Of a DNA stretch of 64,000 bases, positions 3 to 50,313 are shown one piece after another. The number at the start of each line of letters is the position of its first letter. The first letter of the stretch is position 1. The stretch comes from an uncultured Clostridia bacterium (GTDB taxonomy: Bacteria > Bacillota > Clostridia > Christensenellales > Borkfalkiaceae): contig CANQSR010000001.1 of assembly GCA_947626575.1 (NCBI GenBank), positions 62,001 to 126,000 on the forward strand. The letters run 5' to 3'. The notes beneath the pieces were generated by a model. The model searched no databases and was not told the origin of the DNA. It saw only the letters and a program-made list of their open reading frames with translations. A program made the position numbers and the translations under genes.

Positions 3-392
3 TGCAACTTCGTGGTCAAGAAGAGCGGCATCTATAAGATCGTCATCGAGAAGTACACGGGCGATACGCTGCAAGCCTCCATGGAGATCTACAAGGCGTT
101 CTCCTATTCCGAAGAATACGATTCCTTTATCGAAGAGGAACCCGATGAGGGAGAGAACATGCTTGCGCGGCTCGCCGATAGCGGCAACGGAACCGCCGTC
201 GACCAGGACGAATATTGGAACGTATTCGAGAGTTTCGTCACGTCCCTGCACCGTTCTTACGATCCGCGTCTTGCATTCATCATCATCGCAATGATCCTCT
301 TCCTCGGCGATATTGCCGTGCGGAAGTTCAAATTCAAGTGGATCCACGAACTCGTGCGTGAACACAGAGCGAAAAAGGCGGAATCGAAATGA
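3..392 (+). CDS. C-terminal part of a membrane protein truncated by the window start (single C-terminal TM helix plus basic tail)
   Basis: Open frame runs through the window edge (CNFVVKKSGIYKI...); TM LAFIIIAMILFLGDIAV; stop overlaps the next ATG (ATGA). Confidence 0.6.
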   Translation, partial: CNFVVKKSGIYKIVIEKYTGDTLQASMEIYKAFSYSEEYDSFIEEEPDEGENMLARLADSGNGTAVDQDEYWNVFESFVTSLHRSYDPRLAFIIIAMILFLGDIAVRKFKFKWIHELVREHRAKKAESK

Positions 393-3349
393 AGAAGTTG
401 AAGTATTTTACAACCATTCTTTTGGCCCTTGTCATGTTGGTGTTTACGGCGGGGTGTACGAGGACGCTTCCGCTCGATACGCCCGATGCGGCGAGTTTCG
501 TCATCGACGACTCATATAACCTGTATTGGAAATACGTTCCCGCCGCCCGCAGTTACACCGTACTCGTGACGGGAGATGACCAAGACTACCGTCAGGAGAT
601 CCCTTCGCACTATACCCATGTCTCGCTTGCCCACCTTGACGAGGGGAAATACAGCATCCGCGTCATGGCCTCCGGCGGCAGCAACAACGAAGTCACCTCC
701 GCATGGTCGGAACCTTATACCTTCGACCGCGGCCACGAATCAAAACTTACCTACACGCTCATCAACGGCAACACGGAATATGCCGTCACGGGCATCGGAG
801 AGGAGGTGGGCGACGTCGTCATCGATGCGATCTACCGCGGCAAGCCCGTCACGGCCATCGCCGAGAACGCCTTCCGCGGAAAGGGAAACAGCAAGATCAC
901 TTCCGTCAAGATCCCCGAAGGCGTGCGCTCGGTGGGCGACGCGGCCTTCTATAACTGCACCAATCTTGCCTCGATCTCCTTCCCCGCTTCGGTCACGAGC
1001 CTCGGCGCCAAGATCTTTCAGGGTTGCAGCAAACTTGTTTCCGTCACGTTTGCGGAGGGGATCGGGATCACGTCCATTCCGGACTATACCTTTGCCTACT
1101 GCCGCAAGCTCGCGGAGATCTCCATCCCGGAGGGCGTCACCTACATCGGGGAGAGCGCATTCTATAATTGCGACGCTCTGGCGGACATCGCGTTTCCCGA
1201 TAGCGTGGCTTACATCGGCGTGCATGCCTTCGATTCCGATAAGGCCATGAAGTCCGTCTCCTTCGGGAGCGGCATTGCCTATATCGGGGAGAGTTCGTTC
1301 TATAATTGTTCCGAAGTTACCGAGCTCTCGTTCAAGCCCTTGACGGGCGAACTCGTATTGGCCGCGTACGCATTCGAAATGTGCGAAAAACTCACGCAGG
1401 TGCAACTTCCTGAGGGCCTCAGCCTCATTTCCGAACGCGCCTTTTCCCGTTGCCACGAGCTGGAAACCGTCACCATTCCCGATAGCGTCACCGAGATCGA
1501 GGCGAATGCCTTTTATGATACGAAGCTTTATAACAAGCAGAACCCCACGGGCGACCAGACCGCGGACGAGAAAAACGACGGATTCATCTATGCCGACCAT
1601 TGGCTCATCGGCGCCACGAATAAACTCAAACTCAGCATGGAGAAGCTCACCCCCGAAATGATCAAGGAGGGTACCGTGGGGATCGCAGATTGGGCGTTCC
1701 TCACCGCCGTCAGAGGCAACAACGGCGCCGTCGATAATCAAGGGCCTCCCAACCTGACGGAAGTCAACCTCAGATCGAGCATCCGCTATATCGGCGCAAA
1801 TGCCTTTTACAGATGTATCAAGCTGACCCGCTTCTCGACGGAGTTTACCGAAGACGGGAAAACGGGCGGACTCATTTCGATTGGCGATTACGCCTTCCGC
1901 GGGTGCAGTATCCTCCGCAACGTCGTATTGCGCGAGGGGCTTCTCGAAATCGGCAGTTACGCCTTCCGCGATTGCTCCATTTTGACGGACAACGGCGCGA
2001 ACATGATCCCCAAATCGGTTCGGCGCATCGGCACGCGGGCCTATCTCGATTCGGGCCTCTGGCTGAATGCGCGCGAGGCGGACGGCATCGCCTATGCGGG
2101 CAATTGGGTCGTCGGCTTCAATACGGATACTTCGAGTTCGCACAGCGAAATTGCGTTCAAGGACGGCGTCGTCGGCGTTGCCGACTTTGCGTTCTATAAC
2201 AATGAGGAATTGACGCGTATCCAAAAGCTCAACAGTGCGGAGCATATCGGGCGCGGCGCGTTCTTCGGCTGCACGGCGCTCGGCATGGTTTCGCTCAACC
2301 AGAACCTCACCGAGATCGCCGATAACACGTTCAGCGGATGCTCTTCGCTGGCCGTCGTGAATTTCCCCTTTTCCCTCAAACGGATCGGGCTTCGCGCATT
2401 CTATCAATGCACCTTGCTCGATGACATCGACCTCTCGGCCACCGACGTGGAAGAGATCGGGGAGATGGCCTTTTACGGATGTACCAACGTCAAGGAGATC
2501 GGCCTCGGCGGGAAACTTCAAACCATCGGCAGTTCTTCCTTCAACGGTCTCGAACAGATCGAGGAAGTCGTGCTTCCGGATAGCGTCACGGATATCGGCG
2601 CGAATGCGTTTGCGGGATGTACGTCACTCACCGCCGTCACGCTCAGCGGATCCCTGCAAGCGGTCGGTGCGGGCGCGTTCCAGGGCTGCGAATCGCTCGC
2701 TTCGGTGACGATCCCCGATAACGTGACCGAGATCGGGAACTATGCGTTCTATAAATGCGGGTCCCTTGCAACGGCAGACCTCGGAAGCAACACCGTGAGC
2801 ATCGGCACCTATGCCTTCGGCGCGACCGCGCTCACTTCGCTCGTTCTGCCCGCATCCGTCAAGGAGATCGGCGATTACGCCTTCAAGAGTACGAATTCCC
2901 TCACCTCCGTGCTGATGCTCGGCATCCCCGATGCGATCGGGATGCACGCCTTCTACGGAAGCTCCAAGCTGACGTTCTATATCGCGGGAAGCGAGGAGGC
3001 GGCCAATTCGAAGCAGTGGAGTTCCCGCTGGAATTCCGCCTTCCGCCCCGTTGTGTGGGAAGCCGCGGTGAACGCGGAAGAAGGCTATCTCGTATCCTTC
3101 ACGACGGCAGTCACGCCCGGCTATTTCAATCCCGCCAATCCCTTTGCGCGCTTCGGCCTTTCGGCGCCCGTGCGGGAGGGGTACGACTTTGCGGGCTGGG
3201 CAACATCGCCCGGCGGCGAGGCCGTCTATGGCGTGGACGAGTGGCGCAAGGCAGAGATCGGCACCACGTTTTACGCCGTTTGGACGGAACACACGGCCGC
3301 TCCCTCCGAGACGCCCTCCGGGACACCCGAAGAGACGGAACAGAACTGA
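389..3349 (+). CDS. Lipoprotein with many BspA-type leucine-rich repeats (LRR_5) and a C-terminal InlB B-repeat-like domain
   Basis: Lipobox VFTAGC; repeated 'I..YAF..C..L..V.LP..V..IG' units; C-terminal REGYDFAGWAT...FYAVWTE. Confidence 0.9.
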   Translation: MKKLKYFTTILLALVMLVFTAGCTRTLPLDTPDAASFVIDDSYNLYWKYVPAARSYTVLVTGDDQDYRQEIPSHYTHVSLAHLDEGKYSIRVMASGGSNNEVTSAWSEPYTFDRGHESKLTYTLINGNTEYAVTGIGEEVGDVVIDAIYRGKPVTAIAENAFRGKGNSKITSVKIPEGVRSVGDAAFYNCTNLASISFPASVTSLGAKIFQGCSKLVSVTFAEGIGITSIPDYTFAYCRKLAEISIPEGVTYIGESAFYNCDALADIAFPDSVAYIGVHAFDSDKAMKSVSFGSGIAYIGESSFYNCSEVTELSFKPLTGELVLAAYAFEMCEKLTQVQLPEGLSLISERAFSRCHELETVTIPDSVTEIEANAFYDTKLYNKQNPTGDQTADEKNDGFIYADHWLIGATNKLKLSMEKLTPEMIKEGTVGIADWAFLTAVRGNNGAVDNQGPPNLTEVNLRSSIRYIGANAFYRCIKLTRFSTEFTEDGKTGGLISIGDYAFRGCSILRNVVLREGLLEIGSYAFRDCSILTDNGANMIPKSVRRIGTRAYLDSGLWLNAREADGIAYAGNWVVGFNTDTSSSHSEIAFKDGVVGVADFAFYNNEELTRIQKLNSAEHIGRGAFFGCTALGMVSLNQNLTEIADNTFSGCSSLAVVNFPFSLKRIGLRAFYQCTLLDDIDLSATDVEEIGEMAFYGCTNVKEIGLGGKLQTIGSSSFNGLEQIEEVVLPDSVTDIGANAFAGCTSLTAVTLSGSLQAVGAGAFQGCESLASVTIPDNVTEIGNYAFYKCGSLATADLGSNTVSIGTYAFGATALTSLVLPASVKEIGDYAFKSTNSLTSVLMLGIPDAIGMHAFYGSSKLTFYIAGSEEAANSKQWSSRWNSAFRPVVWEAAVNAEEGYLVSFTTAVTPGYFNPANPFARFGLSAPVREGYDFAGWATSPGGEAVYGVDEWRKAEIGTTFYAVWTEHTAAPSETPSGTPEETEQN

Positions 3350-11334: not shown

Positions 11335-11386
11335 GCCTTCCCCTTGGGAGGGGAAGGTGTCTGCCGTACGGCAGACGGATGAGGTG
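11335..11386. repeat. Intergenic palindromic repeat module C, copy 1
   Basis: 52 bp, 51/52 identical to 14022-14073; contains CCTTCCCCTTGGGAGGGGAAGG and TCTGCCGTACGGCAGA palindromes. Confidence 0.9.
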
Positions 11387-14021: not shown

Positions 14022-14073
14022 GCCTTCCCCTTGGGAGGGGAAGGTGTCTGCCGAACGGCAGACGGATGAGGTG
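14022..14073. repeat. Intergenic palindromic repeat module C, copy 2
   Basis: 51/52 identical to 11335-11386. Confidence 0.9.
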
Positions 14074-20888: not shown

Positions 20889-20951
20889 GTAACCATAACG
20901 CTTGTTCGGGCTATTCACGCCCTGCGGGCGCGCCCCTTCGGGGCGCAACCG

Positions 20952-20998
20952 TTGCCTCCCCCCTTTTACCAGAGGGGGGAGGGTAGGGTGGGGGGTGG
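20952..20998. repeat. Intergenic repeat module F, copy 1
   Basis: TTGCCTCCCCCCTT...GAGGGGGGAGGGTAGGGTGGGGGGTG, also at 26598-26641. Confidence 0.8.
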
Positions 20999-26318: not shown

Positions 26319-26330
26319 GTTCACGAAATA

Positions 26331-26566
26331 GGTTCACGAAATTTGTTTGGGCGACGACTTACCTTGCTGTCCCCTTTGGGGAAAGTGGCCCAACGGGCCG
26401 AAAGGGGTTTTCATACTCCAAACAAATTTCCGTGAGGGAAATATAGGTTGACGCCTTCACTTACTTGGTCCTCTCATACGTTCCAACGGACAAGAAGCAA
26501 ACAGGGCTTTGCAAATTGGGTCGCCCACGCCCGAAATGAATTCCGCCTAAGGCAAGTGATTGGAAT
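26331..26566. repeat. ~237-bp tandem intergenic element, copy 1
   Basis: Arms CACGAAATTTGTTTGGG / CCAAACAAATTTCCGTG; right half ~94% identical to copy 2. Confidence 0.9.
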
Positions 26567-26567
26567 G

Positions 26568-26804
26568 GGTTCACGAAATTTGTTTGGGCATACCTCTTGC
26601 CTCCCCCCTTATACATGAGGGGGGAGGGTAGGGTGGGGGGTGTACATCAACTAACCCCAAACAAATTTCCGTGAGGGAAATATACTTTTGCGCCTTAACT
26701 TACTTGGTCCTCTCATACGTTCCAACGGACAATAAGCAAACAGGGCTTTGCAAATTGGGTCGCCCACGCCCGAAATGAATTCGGGCTAAGGCAAGTAATT
26801 GGAA
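26568..26804. repeat. ~237-bp tandem intergenic element, copy 2, different loop content
   Basis: Same arms and right half as copy 1; loop (about 26589-26653) is module F. Confidence 0.9.
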
Positions 26805-26984
26805 GCCCTACCCCCTACGGGGGGAGGGTGGCACGAGCAACGCGAGTGACGGATGGGGGGGGATCTAACCCTATTCCCCCCACCACCGCCCTGCGGGCGG
26901 AGCCTCCCCCCAAAGGGGTAGGCCTTGCGTCAAGCCCTGACGCGCAAGAGACGGAATAAGATTTTACCAATAAAAGGAGCATAT

Positions 26985-42521: not shown

Positions 42522-42624
42522 TTCACCACAATCAATTATTATATAGCACGCGCGAACGTAATGATTTATGCAAGCGCGCCGCCATAGACCAAGACCAAAA
42601 TACATTGCAGGAAAGAAGGAAACC

Positions 42625-45600
42625 ATGGAAAAGACAGGAAAGAAAATCAAATCGCTCGCCCTGTGCGCGTCGGTCGCGCTCATGGCGGGTACCCTCGCCG
42701 CTTCGCAGTTATTGCCCGTTTTCGAGGGCGTCGGCAGGGGAAACTCCGTTTCGGGCAGCGCAGAGACGGCGCTCGTCAGCGAGCAAAACGCCGCCGCGGT
42801 GGATACGCACGTTTCGTCCTATCTCAACAAGAACGTCGTCCAACAGCTCCCGGATAGCCTCGCCGCAGACAGGGAAATTTCCATCCTCGTAGAGACGGCG
42901 GAGAGCGGGATCATGGCGGCATACGACGCACAGAGCGGGATCTCCCGTTATGCGTCCGTCGCGGAGTTCGCCTCGTCCTCCAAGGGCGCAGAGATCGTTT
43001 CGCGCATCGAACGCAGAAATGCGGACGCCAAGAAATATCTCGAACGGAGCGGCGTCTCCTTTACTTACGGCGCTTCCTACAACGTTCTCATGGGCGGCAT
43101 CGAGATCGTCGCCAAGGCGGGGGATTACTACCGCCTCGTTTCCGCGCTCGCAGGCACGGGGTACACGGCGTCCATCAGCGAGGAATATGCTGTCTGCGAG
43201 GCCCAGCGCGTCGATAACACCGTCCACGTGCATGATACGGGTATTTTCAACAGCGAAGGTTCGGGTTACGATGGGTCGGGGACCGTCGTCGCCGTTCTCG
43301 ATACCGGCCTCGACTATACGCATACGGCGTTTGCAGTGGAGCAGTTCAAATCCACCAACCCCGTCATGACCCCGACCACCATCAACGAAAAGGTTTCGCG
43401 CCTCCGCGCCGCAGAGTATACGCCCGGCCTCTCCGCCGCCAACGTATATCTGAGCGCCAAGATCCCCTATGCCTATGACTATGCCGACCACGATACCGAC
43501 GTCTATCCCCACGGGGACGAACACGGCACGCACGTTTCGGGCATCATCGTCGGCAAGGACGACGAGATCACGGGCGTTGCGCCCAATGCGCAGCTCTGCG
43601 CCATGAAAGTGTTCTCGGATAAGGTCAGCGGCGCGCGCTGGTCGTGGATCCTCTCGGCTTTGGAGGACTGCGTGGTGCTCGATGTGGACGTCATCAACAT
43701 GTCCCTCGGCTCCGCGGCGGGCTTCACGGAGGAATCCGACCCCGAAAAATTGCGGGAAAAGATCGTGTATAACAGCGTCGCCGAACACGGTATCAGCCTC
43801 GTGGCGGCCGCCGGCAACGAATATAACTCCACCTTCGGCTCCGAGAAGAACGGCAACCTCGGCCTCACCTCCAATCCCGACTCCGCGACCATCGGCTCCC
43901 CCGGTTCCTATGATTCGGCGCTCGCCGTCGCGTCCATTTCGGGCGTCAAGACGCCGTTCCTTGAATATAAGGGCCAAATCATCTACTTCACCGAGTCCGC
44001 CGACCAATCCTCCGAGACCCGTCACTTCGTGGACGACATCTTGAAGAATGGCGTGAACGAGCAGGAGTTCGAATACATCACCGTACCCGGCGTGGGCCGC
44101 AGTTCGGATTACAGTTCCATCGAAAACGATATCAAGGGCAAGATCGCGCTTGTCCGCCGCGGCGATACTTCTTTCGAGGATAAGTCGCGCGTTGCGCAGA
44201 GGATGGGCGCCGCCGGCGTCATCATCTACAACAACGTTTCGGGCGACATCACCATGACGGTCGGCTCGGTCACCATCCCCGTCTGCTCCATCTCCCGCGA
44301 TAACGGCGAGTTGCTCGCCTCCGTCAAGAGGGGGAAGATCACCGTCAGCAAGGGCAACACCGCAGGCCCCTTCATGTCCGACTTCTCCTCGTGGGGCCCC
44401 ACGCCCGATCTCCGCATCAAGCCCGAAATCACGGCGCACGGCGGCGATATCTATTCCTCCGTCCGCGGTCAGGAATACGACCGTTTTTCGGGTACCTCGA
44501 TGGCCTCGCCCAACCAGGCAGGCGTCACGGCGCTCGTCCGCCAATACGTAAAAGATAAGTTCCCGCAGGCGACCCGCGCCCAGCAGCTCGCCTACACCAA
44601 CCAGATCATGATGTCCACGACGGATATCGCGAAGAACATGAACGGGCTTCCCTACTCCGTGCGAAAACAGGGCGCAGGGCTTGCCAACCTCATCAAGGCG
44701 ACCACGTCGCCCGCCTTCATCAGCACCTTTGCCCGCGACGACAAAGCCGTGGCAAGCCAAAATCCCGACCGCTTCACCGACAAAGTCATCGACAAGGCCA
44801 AGATCGAATACGGTGACGACAAGGAGCGGAAGGGCAGCTATCAGCTCAAATTCAACATCAACAACATCGAGAGCGCCGCACTCACCTATGACGTGGACGC
44901 CATCGTCATGACCGAGGGCATCAGCGAAAACAAGACCTATAAGGGCGACAGAACCGTCACGCAGGAGGGCTACATCCTCGACGGCGCGAAGGTGAAAGTT
45001 GAGAACGTCACGGGAGACGGCTCCCAAAACGGCAACACCGTCACCGTGCAGGGCAAGGGAACGGCGACCGTCGTCGTCGTCATCACGCTCGACGAAAAGA
45101 CGGATAAGGCCTATCTTGACCAATTTGAAAACGGCATGTATGTGGAGGGGTACATCACCCTCACGGTCCCCAATGAAGAAACAGTCGCCCTGAACGTTCC
45201 CTACCTTGCCTTCTACGGCGATTGGACGGAGGCGCCCATCTTCGACCTCGATTACTTCGAGACCGACAAGGATGCGCTCGACGATTCCCTCGCGACGCTG
45301 GATAAGACGTTGCCCGACGCCTATGCAACGACGCCCGTCGGCGGCTTTTACAGCGACTATATCTCCATGCTCGGCTCCTATGTCTTCGTGCAGGATCCCG
45401 CGGCGACCCCGATCTCCGCGACCCGCGACCACATCGCCCTCACCAACCAGGCAGGGGAAGTCGGCGGCGTCAACTATATCTATGGCATCTATGCGGGGCT
45501 TCTCCGCGGCGCAAAGCGCGTGGAAATGAGCGTCACCGACGCCGTGACGGGGGAGGTCATCTGGCAAAATACGGAGTGGAACCAGCGCAAATCTTACAGC

Positions 45601-48600
45601 GCGGGAAGCTCCATCTATCCCGCGATGATCGATGTGGATTTCCACATGACGGATTACGATTTCAAGAACAACACGAAATATATTTTCCGCGCGGAGGCCA
45701 TCCTCGATTACCCCGGCGAGCAAAATAATAAGAAATCCGTCTTTGAATTCCCGTTCGTGACAGACTTCGAGGCGCCCATCGTGACCGATGCGCAGTTCTA
45801 CACCGAATACGATACCACCGCCAAGAAGAACAAGCTCTTCGCGCGCCTCTATATATATGATAACCATTATACAATGGGCGCGAGCATCGGCCAGCTCGTC
45901 TATGCGGAAAAGGGGTCGGGCTCCATGTATTCCCTCAAAGGGTTCGGCAACTATGTCACGCCCGTCTATTCGCAGTTCAATTCCACTTCGGAGCTGGTCG
46001 TCGAACTCACCGACCACATCGCCGATCTCGCCAATTCCATCACGCCCAATACCTTCTCCGTCGCGCTCTATGACTATGCGATGAACCAGGGCGTCTATGA
46101 GGTCCGCATCCCCGACTCCGTGAAGGGACTCTATTTCAGCGAGATGGAGCATGCGGACGGCACCCCCCTCGGCGAGGGCGAATACGGCGTCACGCTCAGC
46201 CCCAACCAGACGTATGTCCTCGAACCCAAGCTGTATCCCGGCACCGAATGGCGCGAAACGCTCACATATACGAGCAACAACGACGCCGTCGCGAAAGTCG
46301 TCAACGGCAAGATCCTTGCGGTAGGGCAGGGGACGGCGGTCATCACGGCCACGAGTAGCGTGGATAAGAATGCCAAGGCGGAACTCTCCGTCAAGGTCCT
46401 CGGCAGCGGCGACCCCGGTTACGAGGAATACACGGAACCCGTCGTGGATGTGTTCCACATCACGGGTTACGAGACGGACTTCGCCTTCTATGATATTTCC
46501 AACGACGACCGTGACCTCGGCCTTACGGACTCCGTGACGGAATTCTCGGCCAATGCGACGACGTATTCCCTCTCCATGTTCCCCTCCGAGCGCGTCACGC
46601 TCACCTATAAGCTCATCGCCTTCGACCCCGCGTCGACCAAGGTCCTCTTTTCGAGCGGTAGCGAGAGGTATGTCCGCGTCGATGAGAACGGGCAGATCAC
46701 CGCAGTCGCAGAGGGTACCACCTCGGTCATGGTACGCGTTGTGAAGGTCAACGAGGACGGTTCGACGACGCCGACCATGTACAACAGGACGGTCATGATC
46801 ACCGTCAAGGACCCCTATGAGCGCAACGGTCCCTATCTCACCTCCTACCGCGGCGGCGGCATGCAGTCCTATACCGATGCAGACGGCAAAGTCCACGAAC
46901 ACGCCGTCGTCATTCCCAAAGAGCTGGGCTTCACCGAGATCGATCAGTTCGCATTTTCGGGCTATCAATATATCCCCAAGGATCTCTCCGCGGGCGACGT
47001 CATCGACGAAGAGGATCCGAGCGCGACCAAGATCTGGTATTACGGCGATAACTCCGACGTCGAGGAAGTCGTCATTCCCGAAGGCGTGAAGAACATCGGC
47101 AACTATGCCTTTGCGGGCATGACGAGCCTCAAACGCGTGGTGCTTCCCTCCACGCTCAACAGGATCGCCATGGGCGCCTTCTATGGCTGCACCAATCTCA
47201 CCGAAGTCGCCGGCCTCGAATATGTCAAGTTCATCAGCCAGGATGCGTTCTCAGGGCCTGCGGTAAACGGCCAATACACGGCCACGCTGCTCACGGGCGT
47301 CAAGGAAGGATCCTTTGCAAATATCGTGGCGATCGGCGACGGCGCATTCCGCGGCACGCTGCTTTCGCGCATCAATCTGCCCGCCTCGGCGCAGTCCATC
47401 GGCGCCTACGCCTTTGCCGACTCTAAGGTCACAAATGTGACTATACGGGCCTCCAAGATCAAACTCGGCAACTATGCGTTCGCGCGCTGTGCGTCCCTTG
47501 CCAAGATGGAAGTGAACGCCTCCGTCATCCCCGACGGCGTGTTCGAGGGCTGTACAGAACTCGAAAAAATTACGCTCGGCGCGGACGTCGAGAGCATCGG
47601 CCCGAACGCCTTTGCGGGGACGAACATCGCGAGCTTCATTGTGCGGCCGGGCAATCCCAACTTTGCCGCGCAGGATTCCTATTCCTATCTCCTCAGCAAG
47701 GATGGAAAGACGCTCCTTCAAGTGGCGCCCGCGGCAGGAAACACCTTCCCCGCCGCCGATAACACCGATACGCGGCTCGAAAGTCTGGAAGAGATCGGCA
47801 CGGGTGCGTTTTCGAGTTGCACTTCCCTGACGTCGGTGAACCTGCCGAGCGTCAAGCGCGTGGGCAACTATGCGTTCTATGGTTGCGAAGAACTCTCCAC
47901 GCTCCATCTCGGCGCGCTTGAAGAGATCGGCGACTATGCCTTCGCGTTCTCCGGCCTCAAAACCATCCCGACGCTTGCGGATACGCTCACGGAGATCGGC
48001 AGTTATGCCTTCGCGGCCACCGCGCTCACGAGCGTCAATATCGCAGCTGCGGATGCGGAAAAGGGCTTCTTCATCGGCGAGGGCGCCTTTGCGGCCAACA
48101 AGCTTCTCAGCACCGTCACCATCGGCGATAACGTCACCGTCGGCACGGGCGCCTTCCAGGCGGCCTATAACGTCGAGGAAGTCACGATGGGGTCGATGAA
48201 CAGGGACGACGGTGTCACCGTCAAGCAATATTATACGCACATTGTTTCCCCCGAAACCCTTAAATCTGTCACGCTCGGCAAGAACGTGACGGTGGGCGAG
48301 CAGGCCTTCTCCTACCAGACGGGGCTTCAACAGCTGACTGCCGGCGAGGGGACGGTCATCGGCGACGGCGCCTTCTACGGCAGTTCGTCCTTCACGATCA
48401 CTACTAACGGCAACATCTCGGCCGTCAATCTTACGGCAGATCTCTCCAAGGTCAAATCCATCGGCGCGGATGCGTTCTCAGGCCCCGCTGTCAACATGTA
48501 TATTTCCTTTACGAGCAAAGGGCAGGACGAACCCGATTCCATTTCCGATGAAGGGAGTATAGGCTGGTGGCAGGCGCCGCAGATCACGACGGTGAACCTT

Positions 48601-50313
48601 ACGTCCCTCGAATCGCTCGGCGAAGGCGCGTTTGCCTACAACCAATTCCTCGGCTATGAGGAAGGTTCGCTCACGCTCGGCGATAAGCTCACCGAGATCC
48701 CCGCATCGGCATTCACATATTCCAATCTCACCACCGTGGACCTCAAAAACGTCACCAAGGTGGGGGACGGCGCGTTCATGGCAAGCTATAATCTCACAGG
48801 CGTTGACCTCAGCAAGCTCACCGAGATCGGCGCGGGCGCCTTCGCGGCAAATGCCCTCACCTCGGTCACCCTCCAAGAGGGCGTCACCGTGGGCGCAGAG
48901 GCGTTTTACAGCAACATAGAACTTAAAGAGGTGAAGGGCCTCGGCGGGATCGCTTCCATCGGCGCGGGCGCCTTCGCGGGTACGGCCATCTCCGGCGACG
49001 TCAGTCTTTCGGCGACGTCCATCGGCGATATGGCCTTTATGGGTACGGGGCTTACCTCCGTCACCCTCCCCGAAACGCTCACCTACATCGGGGAAAATCC
49101 CTTCGCGGGCTGTCCGCTCAAACCCTTCACCAAGACGGAAGATGAGAAGTTCCACGGCCAGACCGTGGGCAGTACCACCGTCACTGACTTCGTCATCAAC
49201 GAAGAGGCGGGCATCGAGGTCATCGGCGGCGCTCTCTATAAGACCACGCCCGCGGGCGGCCGCGTGCTTGTCACCTATCCGATGAACGCAACGGCGCGCG
49301 AGTTCGTCGTGGCGGATAACACCGTCCGCATCTCCGCCTTTGCCTTCATGGGCAGCAGTGTGTATGCGGTCACGCTCCCGGAGACGGTCAAGGCGCTCGG
49401 CGATAAGGCCTTCTATGGCTGCGACAAGTTGGGCATCGTCACCTTCCAGAGCTACAATTCGCCCATCCTCGAAGAGCAGTACGATGCCTCCTATGCGGAT
49501 CTGCCGCGCGAAGATGAGGACGGCTCTCCGATAGAAGATGAGGACGGCAATTACGTCACCAACCTTCCTTCCCAGCCCGCCTTCGAAATCTTCACGGATA
49601 CAGGGGCCACCGACCTCGGTATCCTCAAATTCCGCACGATGGGCTTCGATGCGCCCAACTTCTTCTTCGGAGCCAACTTCGTAGGTTATATCGGCAAGTG
49701 CGCGGGCGACCTCATCATGATCTGCCCCTCCAACGGCGTCGGATACGATTCCTTCATCTTCTCGCAGTACTTCGAGGCGAGGATCAAGGGCGCGCCCGCG
49801 GCCGACGATGTGACGCTTGCGGCCATGGCGGCCATCCGCTCGCTTCCCGATAGCATCATGTACGATCATAAACCGCTCGTGGTAGAGGCGCGCAGGCTGT
49901 ATGACCTCATCGTCTCCGAAGAACAGCGCGGCATCGTGGAGACGGCAGGATTGGAACTCAAACTCACGCAGGCCGAAGCCATGATCCAATTCTATGACCA
50001 GGAGCAAAATCCCAATCAGCCCACACCGCCCGCAGAGGAGGAGAAAGAAGGTCCCGATGCGCTCGTCATTACCCTGAGCGTGCTTGTGGGCGTGTTCGGC
50101 GCCGCCGCCATCGTCGCGTTCGTGCTGCTCTTCCTCTCCCGCCGTAAACCGCAGGGGACTGCGGGAACGGATGGCCCCCAAGAGAACACGGCGGAAAGCG
50201 CCGAAGAGAGCGGAACCGAGGCGGACGGCACGGCGGAAAACGGCGAGGAAAGCGCGGATGCCGATAGCGGCGAAAGCGGAGAAAACGACGGCGCCGCTCC
50301 GGAGGAAAGGTAA
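42625..50313 (+). CDS. Giant (2562 aa) surface S8 subtilase with PA-like, Ig-like (Big_2) and BspA-type LRR domains, C-terminal TM and acidic tail
   Basis: Catalytic triad motifs VLDTGLDYTH, DEHGTHVSGI, FSGTSMASPNQAG; VVNGKILAVGQGTAVITATSS; many LRR_5 units from ~46.9 to 49.4 kb; LVITLSVLVGVFGAAAIVAFVLLFLSRRK. Confidence 0.92.
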   Translation: MEKTGKKIKSLALCASVALMAGTLAASQLLPVFEGVGRGNSVSGSAETALVSEQNAAAVDTHVSSYLNKNVVQQLPDSLAADREISILVETAESGIMAAYDAQSGISRYASVAEFASSSKGAEIVSRIERRNADAKKYLERSGVSFTYGASYNVLMGGIEIVAKAGDYYRLVSALAGTGYTASISEEYAVCEAQRVDNTVHVHDTGIFNSEGSGYDGSGTVVAVLDTGLDYTHTAFAVEQFKSTNPVMTPTTINEKVSRLRAAEYTPGLSAANVYLSAKIPYAYDYADHDTDVYPHGDEHGTHVSGIIVGKDDEITGVAPNAQLCAMKVFSDKVSGARWSWILSALEDCVVLDVDVINMSLGSAAGFTEESDPEKLREKIVYNSVAEHGISLVAAAGNEYNSTFGSEKNGNLGLTSNPDSATIGSPGSYDSALAVASISGVKTPFLEYKGQIIYFTESADQSSETRHFVDDILKNGVNEQEFEYITVPGVGRSSDYSSIENDIKGKIALVRRGDTSFEDKSRVAQRMGAAGVIIYNNVSGDITMTVGSVTIPVCSISRDNGELLASVKRGKITVSKGNTAGPFMSDFSSWGPTPDLRIKPEITAHGGDIYSSVRGQEYDRFSGTSMASPNQAGVTALVRQYVKDKFPQATRAQQLAYTNQIMMSTTDIAKNMNGLPYSVRKQGAGLANLIKATTSPAFISTFARDDKAVASQNPDRFTDKVIDKAKIEYGDDKERKGSYQLKFNINNIESAALTYDVDAIVMTEGISENKTYKGDRTVTQEGYILDGAKVKVENVTGDGSQNGNTVTVQGKGTATVVVVITLDEKTDKAYLDQFENGMYVEGYITLTVPNEETVALNVPYLAFYGDWTEAPIFDLDYFETDKDALDDSLATLDKTLPDAYATTPVGGFYSDYISMLGSYVFVQDPAATPISATRDHIALTNQAGEVGGVNYIYGIYAGLLRGAKRVEMSVTDAVTGEVIWQNTEWNQRKSYSAGSSIYPAMIDVDFHMTDYDFKNNTKYIFRAEAILDYPGEQNNKKSVFEFPFVTDFEAPIVTDAQFYTEYDTTAKKNKLFARLYIYDNHYTMGASIGQLVYAEKGSGSMYSLKGFGNYVTPVYSQFNSTSELVVELTDHIADLANSITPNTFSVALYDYAMNQGVYEVRIPDSVKGLYFSEMEHADGTPLGEGEYGVTLSPNQTYVLEPKLYPGTEWRETLTYTSNNDAVAKVVNGKILAVGQGTAVITATSSVDKNAKAELSVKVLGSGDPGYEEYTEPVVDVFHITGYETDFAFYDISNDDRDLGLTDSVTEFSANATTYSLSMFPSERVTLTYKLIAFDPASTKVLFSSGSERYVRVDENGQITAVAEGTTSVMVRVVKVNEDGSTTPTMYNRTVMITVKDPYERNGPYLTSYRGGGMQSYTDADGKVHEHAVVIPKELGFTEIDQFAFSGYQYIPKDLSAGDVIDEEDPSATKIWYYGDNSDVEEVVIPEGVKNIGNYAFAGMTSLKRVVLPSTLNRIAMGAFYGCTNLTEVAGLEYVKFISQDAFSGPAVNGQYTATLLTGVKEGSFANIVAIGDGAFRGTLLSRINLPASAQSIGAYAFADSKVTNVTIRASKIKLGNYAFARCASLAKMEVNASVIPDGVFEGCTELEKITLGADVESIGPNAFAGTNIASFIVRPGNPNFAAQDSYSYLLSKDGKTLLQVAPAAGNTFPAADNTDTRLESLEEIGTGAFSSCTSLTSVNLPSVKRVGNYAFYGCEELSTLHLGALEEIGDYAFAFSGLKTIPTLADTLTEIGSYAFAATALTSVNIAAADAEKGFFIGEGAFAANKLLSTVTIGDNVTVGTGAFQAAYNVEEVTMGSMNRDDGVTVKQYYTHIVSPETLKSVTLGKNVTVGEQAFSYQTGLQQLTAGEGTVIGDGAFYGSSSFTITTNGNISAVNLTADLSKVKSIGADAFSGPAVNMYISFTSKGQDEPDSISDEGSIGWWQAPQITTVNLTSLESLGEGAFAYNQFLGYEEGSLTLGDKLTEIPASAFTYSNLTTVDLKNVTKVGDGAFMASYNLTGVDLSKLTEIGAGAFAANALTSVTLQEGVTVGAEAFYSNIELKEVKGLGGIASIGAGAFAGTAISGDVSLSATSIGDMAFMGTGLTSVTLPETLTYIGENPFAGCPLKPFTKTEDEKFHGQTVGSTTVTDFVINEEAGIEVIGGALYKTTPAGGRVLVTYPMNATAREFVVADNTVRISAFAFMGSSVYAVTLPETVKALGDKAFYGCDKLGIVTFQSYNSPILEEQYDASYADLPREDEDGSPIEDEDGNYVTNLPSQPAFEIFTDTGATDLGILKFRTMGFDAPNFFFGANFVGYIGKCAGDLIMICPSNGVGYDSFIFSQYFEARIKGAPAADDVTLAAMAAIRSLPDSIMYDHKPLVVEARRLYDLIVSEEQRGIVETAGLELKLTQAEAMIQFYDQEQNPNQPTPPAEEEKEGPDALVITLSVLVGVFGAAAIVAFVLLFLSRRKPQGTAGTDGPQENTAESAEESGTEADGTAENGEESADADSGESGENDGAAPEER

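What the first reader, a model, noticed from the sequence alone, without database searches (positions are those of the whole stretch)
26331..26804. Tandem ~237-bp intergenic element with exchangeable cassettes inside an inverted-repeat loop
Seen: two adjacent copies share arms CACGAAATTTGTTTGGG / CCAAACAAATTTCCGTG and a ~150-bp right half (about 94% identical by eye), but the ~65-bp interiors (26352-26417 and 26589-26653) are unrelated. Each interior is itself a dispersed module: TTGCTGTCCC..GGGCCGAAAGGGG in copy 1, and module F (also at 20952-20998) in copy 2. This looks like a modular non-coding element that swaps or captures hairpin cassettes. The mechanism is inference, and no transposase or recombinase is nearby.
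Basis: partly seen in the sequence, partly recalled or inferred. Interest (0 to 1): 0.62.

Follow-up and report, generated by a model that had tools for sequence, protein, structure and literature searches.

The report
Mosaic hairpin repeat with swapped tips
Bacteria of one uncultured gut genus carry dozens of copies of a non-coding DNA element, usually right next to genes, built around a long hairpin whose tip has captured other repeated hairpins and whose parts are reshuffled among copies, which makes it a good natural test case for how bacterial genomes build and remix small structured repeats.

Summary
The two units in the purL-fhs spacer (26333-26804) belong to a dispersed family, not a local duplication: 62 BLAST places in the 1.9-Mb genome and covariance-model matches in 50 of 61 congeners, but only one marginal match outside the genus. 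Each unit has a long hairpin (P1; 33 different outer stems, 10.85 of 11 pairs Watson-Crick against 7.8 with shuffled arms) followed by covarying helices. The P1 tip is exchangeable: 45 two-armed units of this genome hold module F (17), two forms of module T (18), one other cassette, three nested inserts, or nothing (6). F and T also stand alone elsewhere. Cassette class is independent of the flanking right half (13/35 vs 12.5 expected), yet all 35 F and T cassettes lie in one orientation: rare capture, then shuffling by recombination. P1 abuts gene edges (median 14 nt; right end 283 nt). No Y1 transposase or reverse transcriptase domain was found in this genome. Best filed as a new variant of mosaic palindromic repeats (BIME / yeast GC-cluster-like). 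Enzyme, if any, and function unknown.

The parts
26320..26329 (+). partial extra copy of the left end (TTCACGAAAT), one base after the purL stop codon
26333..26569 (+). unit 1 of the element (carries a form-i T cassette)
   Evidence: model match 26398-26556, 118.7 bits
26335..26351 (+). unit 1 P1 left arm CACGAAATTTGTTTGGG
26352..26417 (+). unit 1 cassette (module T form i: CTGTCCCCTTTGGGGAAAGTGGCCCAACGGGCCGAAAGGGG)
26418..26434 (+). unit 1 P1 right arm CCAAACAAATTTCCGTG (bulged C)
26497..26512 (+). unit 1 helix P3 (GCAAACAGGGCTTTGC), followed by conserved AAATTG
26523..26553 (+). unit 1 tail hairpin P4; its two halves come from different P4 versions (CCCGAA..TTCCGC) and do not fully pair
   Evidence: read against the two P4 versions
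26570..26804 (+). unit 2 of the element (carries an F cassette)
   Evidence: model match 26647-26795, 136.1 bits
26572..26588 (+). unit 2 P1 left arm
26589..26656 (+). unit 2 cassette, module F proper at 26600-26642
26657..26673 (+). unit 2 P1 right arm
26736..26751 (+). unit 2 helix P3
26762..26792 (+). unit 2 tail hairpin P4 (GCCCACGCCCGAA..TTCGGGCTAAGGC)
20941..20997 (+). freestanding copy of module F (no arms)

Best explanation
A genus-restricted family of multi-copy, structured intergenic repeats about 160 nt long without a cassette (about 235 with one), presumably spread as non-autonomous mobile DNA. Each unit has a long left hairpin (P1) next to a gene edge and a right half with two further well-supported helices (P3, P4). 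In the basic form P1 ends in a loop of about 5 nt. In several lineages, unrelated GC-rich hairpin modules that are themselves dispersed repeats have been captured into the P1 loop. After rare captures, the upper part of P1 (apex plus cassette) and the tail hairpin have been reshuffled among copies by recombination or gene conversion, giving a mosaic family. Shown: dispersal, helix covariation, empty and filled tips, freestanding modules, independence of cassette and right half, single cassette orientation, species-to-species presence/absence at the purL-fhs site. Inferred: recombination as the shuffling process, capture by insertion at the apex, and mobility by an unidentified enzyme or a replication-linked process.
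For: 62 places in the own genome; model R1 matches 50/61 congeners, up to the 48 candidates scored per genome. P1: 33 distinct outer stems, 10.85/11 WC pairs vs 7.76 (max 8.55 in 1000 shuffles). 20-pair structure: 96.7% paired vs 83% shuffled, 90 double changes vs 24, covariation 0.348 vs 0.114, 0/500 shuffles reach it; slid versions 26-41% paired. Same arms with empty or different tips: table of 45 units, e.g. C22:2090 and C11:64255 empty; G006 has near-identical P1 arms with an 11-nt loop (L323) and a 72-nt cassette (L326). Modules freestanding with sharp edges. Shuffling: nearest neighbour by right flank shares cassette class 13/35, expected 12.5; tail type shared with nearest proximal neighbour 23/39, expected 19.6, p=0.21, while P3 and P4 types are tightly linked, showing that linkage is detectable. 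Reciprocal chimeras C25:3938 and C25:3583 with mismatched apex arms; chimeric P4 in unit 1 of the window. 35/35 F and T cassettes in one orientation. purL-fhs spacer: many congeners have 12-40 nt only, G006 a unit with an empty tip, G024 a unit with another cassette, G000 two units.
Against: No precise target-site duplication or terminal inverted repeat was demonstrated, and no enzyme was found, so mobility rests on copy number and presence/absence. The species compared are diverged (75-91% identity over the FTHFS start), so no single swap was seen between near-identical strains. F copies inside arms show several internal variants also seen in freestanding F, which would also fit repeated capture. 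Arms were located by maximising complementarity, which inflates P1 pairing somewhat, and the shuffled-arm control inherits that selection. As RNA, unit 1 does not fold better than shuffled sequence (z -1.4) and its arms are not paired in the minimum-energy structure, whereas unit 2 folded as DNA does (z -5.2). Units are from a draft assembly.
Confidence: 0.72

Rival explanations
1. The element is mainly a functional cis-acting RNA: a 3'-UTR structure just after stop codons that protects or terminates the transcript or affects the upstream gene's translation, whose apical P1 loop simply tolerates insertions.
For: Covarying helices; 9 of 17 first units lie 0-14 nt after a stop codon; published work cited in PMC12306157 says REPs within 15 nt of a stop codon can lower translation.
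Against: Some units adjoin the start of a divergent gene instead, so orientation to transcription is not fixed; copy number and distribution vary widely between congeners, with 0 to at least 48 matches; tandem arrays; P1 has only 2 wobble pairs in 363 positions, fewer than usual for a helix selected as RNA; unit 1 is not unusually stable as RNA.
Confidence: 0.2
2. An active trans-acting recombinase or transposase recognises hairpin tips and repeatedly inserts or swaps the cassettes.
For: Cassettes with clean edges at the apex and several unrelated cassette families in different species; IS elements that insert at the axis of REP palindromes are known (PMC1525189).
Against: No Y1 transposase or RVT_1 in this genome, and neither tracks element number across congeners; cassettes sit in one orientation only; no transposase among ten neighbouring proteins. 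Other enzyme families were not searched.
Confidence: 0.12
3. A simple local tandem duplication with one degenerate interior.
For: The two units in the window are adjacent and 93% identical in the right half.
Against: 62 places genome-wide and a genus-wide family; both interiors are intact repeats found elsewhere.
Confidence: 0.01

Closest known systems
Bacterial interspersed mosaic elements (BIMEs) and REP palindromes
   Same: Intergenic, multi-copy, palindromic, combined in mosaic arrays, often close to stop codons
   Different: REPs are 20-40 nt with GTAG or CGTC tags (PMC3733652) and are linked to RAYT-type Y1 transposases (own knowledge); here units are ~160-235 nt with several helices, no Y1 domain was found in this genome, and whole GC-rich repeats sit inside the hairpin loop
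Yeast mitochondrial GC clusters, fungal double-hairpin elements and sponge repetitive hairpin elements
   Same: Short mobile hairpins that spread through intergenic DNA and occur in tandem; GC clusters merge and shuffle units (PMC4478555, PMC2800124)
   Different: Bacterial; stems vary with compensation while a single-stranded core (AAGC..GCAAATTG) is conserved, whereas in GC42 and sponge elements the changes fall mainly in loops
REP palindromes as targets of insertion sequences (IS1397, ISRm22 and others)
   Same: Insertion of another mobile sequence at the axis of a repeated palindrome (PMC1525189)
   Different: The inserted sequences here are short non-coding hairpin repeats, not transposase-coding IS
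[quoted passage not shown]
   Same: Small, non-coding, multi-copy, presence/absence between species
   Different: No terminal inverted repeats spanning the element and no target-site duplication found
Stem-loop repeat families of bacterial genomes (PMC2267715)
   Same: Repeated structured intergenic families
   Different: No mention of mosaic, modular or nested tips found in the text search of that paper

Membership tests
REP/BIME (RAYT-linked) | Multi-copy intergenic palindrome | tested here: met
REP/BIME (RAYT-linked) | GTAG or CGTC tag at the foot of a 20-40 nt palindrome | tested here: not met
   Sequences before the P1 stem are variable, mostly ending in T, with no GTAG/CGTC tag by inspection
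REP/BIME (RAYT-linked) | Y1 (RAYT-type) transposase in the same genome | tested here: not met
   none in the own genome (97% complete draft); 10 of 41 congeners, not tracking copy number
MITE | Terminal inverted repeats | tested here: not met
   Left end TTCACG.. and right end ..GGCAAG(T)(G/A)ATT compared by eye; no inverted repeat spanning the unit
MITE | Target-site duplication | tested here: inconclusive
   purL-fhs spacer comparison is too diverged to show a precise empty site
Known Rfam RNA family | Score above the curated cut-off of any of 4227 families | tested here: not met
Integron attC sites | Core sites RYYYAAC / GTTRRRY and an integron integrase | not tested
   No obvious core site noticed by eye; no integrase search was run
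Yeast GC-cluster-like mobile hairpins (works like) | Merging and shuffling of hairpin units | tested here: met
   (analogy of behaviour, not homology)

The most novel reading that the evidence does not exclude
The P1 apex is a dedicated exchange site: an unidentified trans-acting enzyme, or a replication-linked strand-switching process acting on single-stranded hairpins, moves hairpin cassettes between tips, a miniature non-coding cassette system.
Probability: 0.12. Interest if true: 0.85.

Novelty: new variant of a known kind. Interest (0 to 1): 0.52.

Why it matters
Mosaic palindromic repeats have been known for decades, but how hairpins end up inside hairpins and how the pieces are remixed is largely untested. 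This family offers dozens of units per genome in many related species, with empty and filled tips, chimeric stems and freestanding donor modules, so capture and exchange can be reconstructed event by event. Its anchoring to gene edges also makes any effect on transcript ends or translation testable.

Tried and rejected
Rfam at curated and permissive thresholds gave nothing meaningful. Y1 transposase and reverse transcriptase as mobilisers: absent from this genome and not tracking copy number. Y1 and RT loci in congeners carry only weak model matches nearby (best 17 bits, E 0.03). Idea that tandem arrays have one tail type inside and another at the end: my script misfiled the alpha tails; a hand count from the same listing gave about 10/24 alpha vs 15/25 beta units followed by another unit, no clear difference. 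Idea that the P1 hairpin alone is a dispersed repeat in species lacking the full element: matches are mostly chance or coding-like. Two exact element patterns are absent from the viral contigs.

Full report
Check of the observation. The right halves are 93% identical over 151 nt, the arms are as given, and the interiors are unrelated. Each interior is itself a dispersed module: F is found 69 times in the own genome with no hit for the reversed control, many copies freestanding with sharp edges and unrelated flanks; module T (CTGTCCC..GGGAAAGTG[hairpin]AAAGGG) is found freestanding at least 11 times in the stretches read, once in the same form as in unit 1.

A family, not a duplication. The 474-bp pair hits 62 places in the 1.9-Mb draft genome, and the left arm occurs 47 times with up to 2 mismatches against 0 for the reversed control. 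An exact 19-base core pattern scanned over one genome per 84,980 species gave 49 stretches, all in MAGs named Lapin-, titled uncultured Clostridia (rabbit origin inferred from the name). A covariance model matches 50 of 61 genomes of the genus, up to the 48 candidates scored per genome. In a sample of 200 genomes of the order, matches outside the genus came down to one marginal hit, E 9e-4. The element is therefore essentially genus-restricted, and absent or rare in some members.

Structure. Across species the P1 arms differ completely in sequence but still pair. For 33 distinct outer stems of 11 nt, 10.85 pairs are Watson-Crick; shuffling right arms among units gives 7.76 on average and at most 8.55 in 1000 trials, and positions 4-8 use three or four pair types. 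Helices P3 and P4 covary too: 20 pairs, 96.7% of cells paired, 90 double changes against 24 in shuffles, 0 of 500 shuffles reach the observed values, and sliding the partners by 1-3 columns drops pairing to 26-41%. Between P3 and P4 the stretch AAATTG is nearly invariant. Caveat: arms were located by searching for complementarity. The single-sequence folds are mixed: unit 1 as RNA is not more stable than shuffles (z -1.4), unit 2 as single-stranded DNA is (z -5.2).

The exchangeable tip. Of 45 units with both arms in this genome, 17 carry F, 11 and 7 carry two forms of T, 1 a GTCATTCTGAG module, 3 larger nested inserts, and 6 have an empty tip of 2-6 nt. In relatives the short-loop form is common, and other lineages carry other cassettes; one genome (G006) has near-identical P1 arms once with an 11-nt loop and once with a 72-nt cassette. 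A second species, Lapin-032 bin107, has almost the same arms as this genome but a GTCATACCGAG-type cassette in most of the units read.

Capture or shuffling? If each cassette defined an old subfamily, units with similar right halves would share cassettes. They do not: nearest neighbours by the 60 nt right of P1 share cassette class in 13 of 35 cases, 12.5 expected (p=0.50; whole right half p=0.17). Tail type is likewise not significantly tied to the proximal part (23 of 39, 19.6 expected, p=0.21), whereas P3 and P4 types are tightly linked, so real linkage is detectable in these data. Cassette class is tied to the arm apex (GTTTGG..CC or GTTTTGC..GCA), with exceptions at C25:3938 and C25:3583 that are reciprocal chimeras with unpaired apices. 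Unit 1 of the window also has a P4 hairpin whose halves come from two versions. All 35 F and T cassettes lie in one orientation. Together this favours few captures followed by exchange of the upper P1 and other segments among units. Internal variants of F shared between armed and freestanding copies mean that continuing exchange with freestanding modules, or several captures, cannot be excluded.

Location. First units of arrays start a median of 14 nt from a gene edge, 10 of 17 within 14 nt, nine of these after a stop codon; the far end lies a median of 283 nt from the next gene, and freestanding F modules lie a few hundred nt from genes. Some units instead start just upstream of a divergent gene. 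In the orthologous purL-fhs spacer many congeners have 12-40 nt; G006 has a unit with an empty tip directly after the stop codon, G024 a unit with a different cassette, G004 and G018 only a P1-like hairpin. This is presence/absence between species, at a favoured position.

Mobiliser. No Y1 transposase or RVT_1 was found in this 97%-complete draft. In congeners, Y1 occurs in 10 of 41 and RVT_1 in 6 of 41 genomes, without tracking element number. None of ten neighbouring proteins scanned is a transposase. Other enzyme families were not searched, so mobility in trans remains open.

Comparison with known systems. It behaves like mosaic palindromic repeats: BIMEs and REPs in bacteria, GC clusters in yeast mitochondria, which merge and shuffle (PMC4478555), and hairpin elements of sponge mitochondria (PMC2800124). 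It fails tested features of RAYT-linked REPs (no GTAG/CGTC tag, no Y1 enzyme here) and of MITEs (no terminal inverted repeats), and no Rfam family matches. REPs are known insertion targets for IS elements (PMC1525189), a precedent for insertion at a palindrome axis. I therefore call it a new variant of a known kind.

Noticed in passing
window 11335-11386 and 14022-14073: Another dispersed hairpin repeat (GCCTTCCCCTTGGGAGGGGAAGG..GTCTGCC..GGCAGAC..), 52 nt, 98% identical copies.
   Followed up: no
window 26805-26960: Further GC-rich modules fill the rest of the purL-fhs spacer after unit 2, including one with a GTGGCACGAGC..GCGAGTGAC inner hairpin.
   Followed up: no
modules F and T, genome-wide: The modules themselves have exchangeable inner hairpins: in F the slot between GGGGGGAGG and GGGGGTG holds GTAGG, ATTTAGG, TGTCCGC..GCGGACA or TGTCACGGC..GCCGTGACA; in T the hairpin between AAAGTG and AAAGGG varies likewise. 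Swapping occurs at several nested levels.
   Followed up: partly
L201 1-600: Three near-identical tandem units of about 202 bp, a recent array expansion in a congener.
   Followed up: no
G000 C7:70330, C6:39104 and 39271: Perfect hairpins with tetraloop-sized tips just upstream of genes (one before a recA-like start), divergent empty-tip members of the family.
   Followed up: partly
P1 stems of all species: P1 has almost no G-T wobble pairs (2 of 363 positions), while P3 shows about 5%, which hints that P1 is maintained as a DNA palindrome.
   Followed up: partly
window 389-3349 and 42568-50313: Large open frames with repeated IG(D/N)YAFAG-like motifs, seen as repeat families D1-D3; possibly BspA-type leucine-rich repeat surface proteins (not tested).
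   Followed up: no
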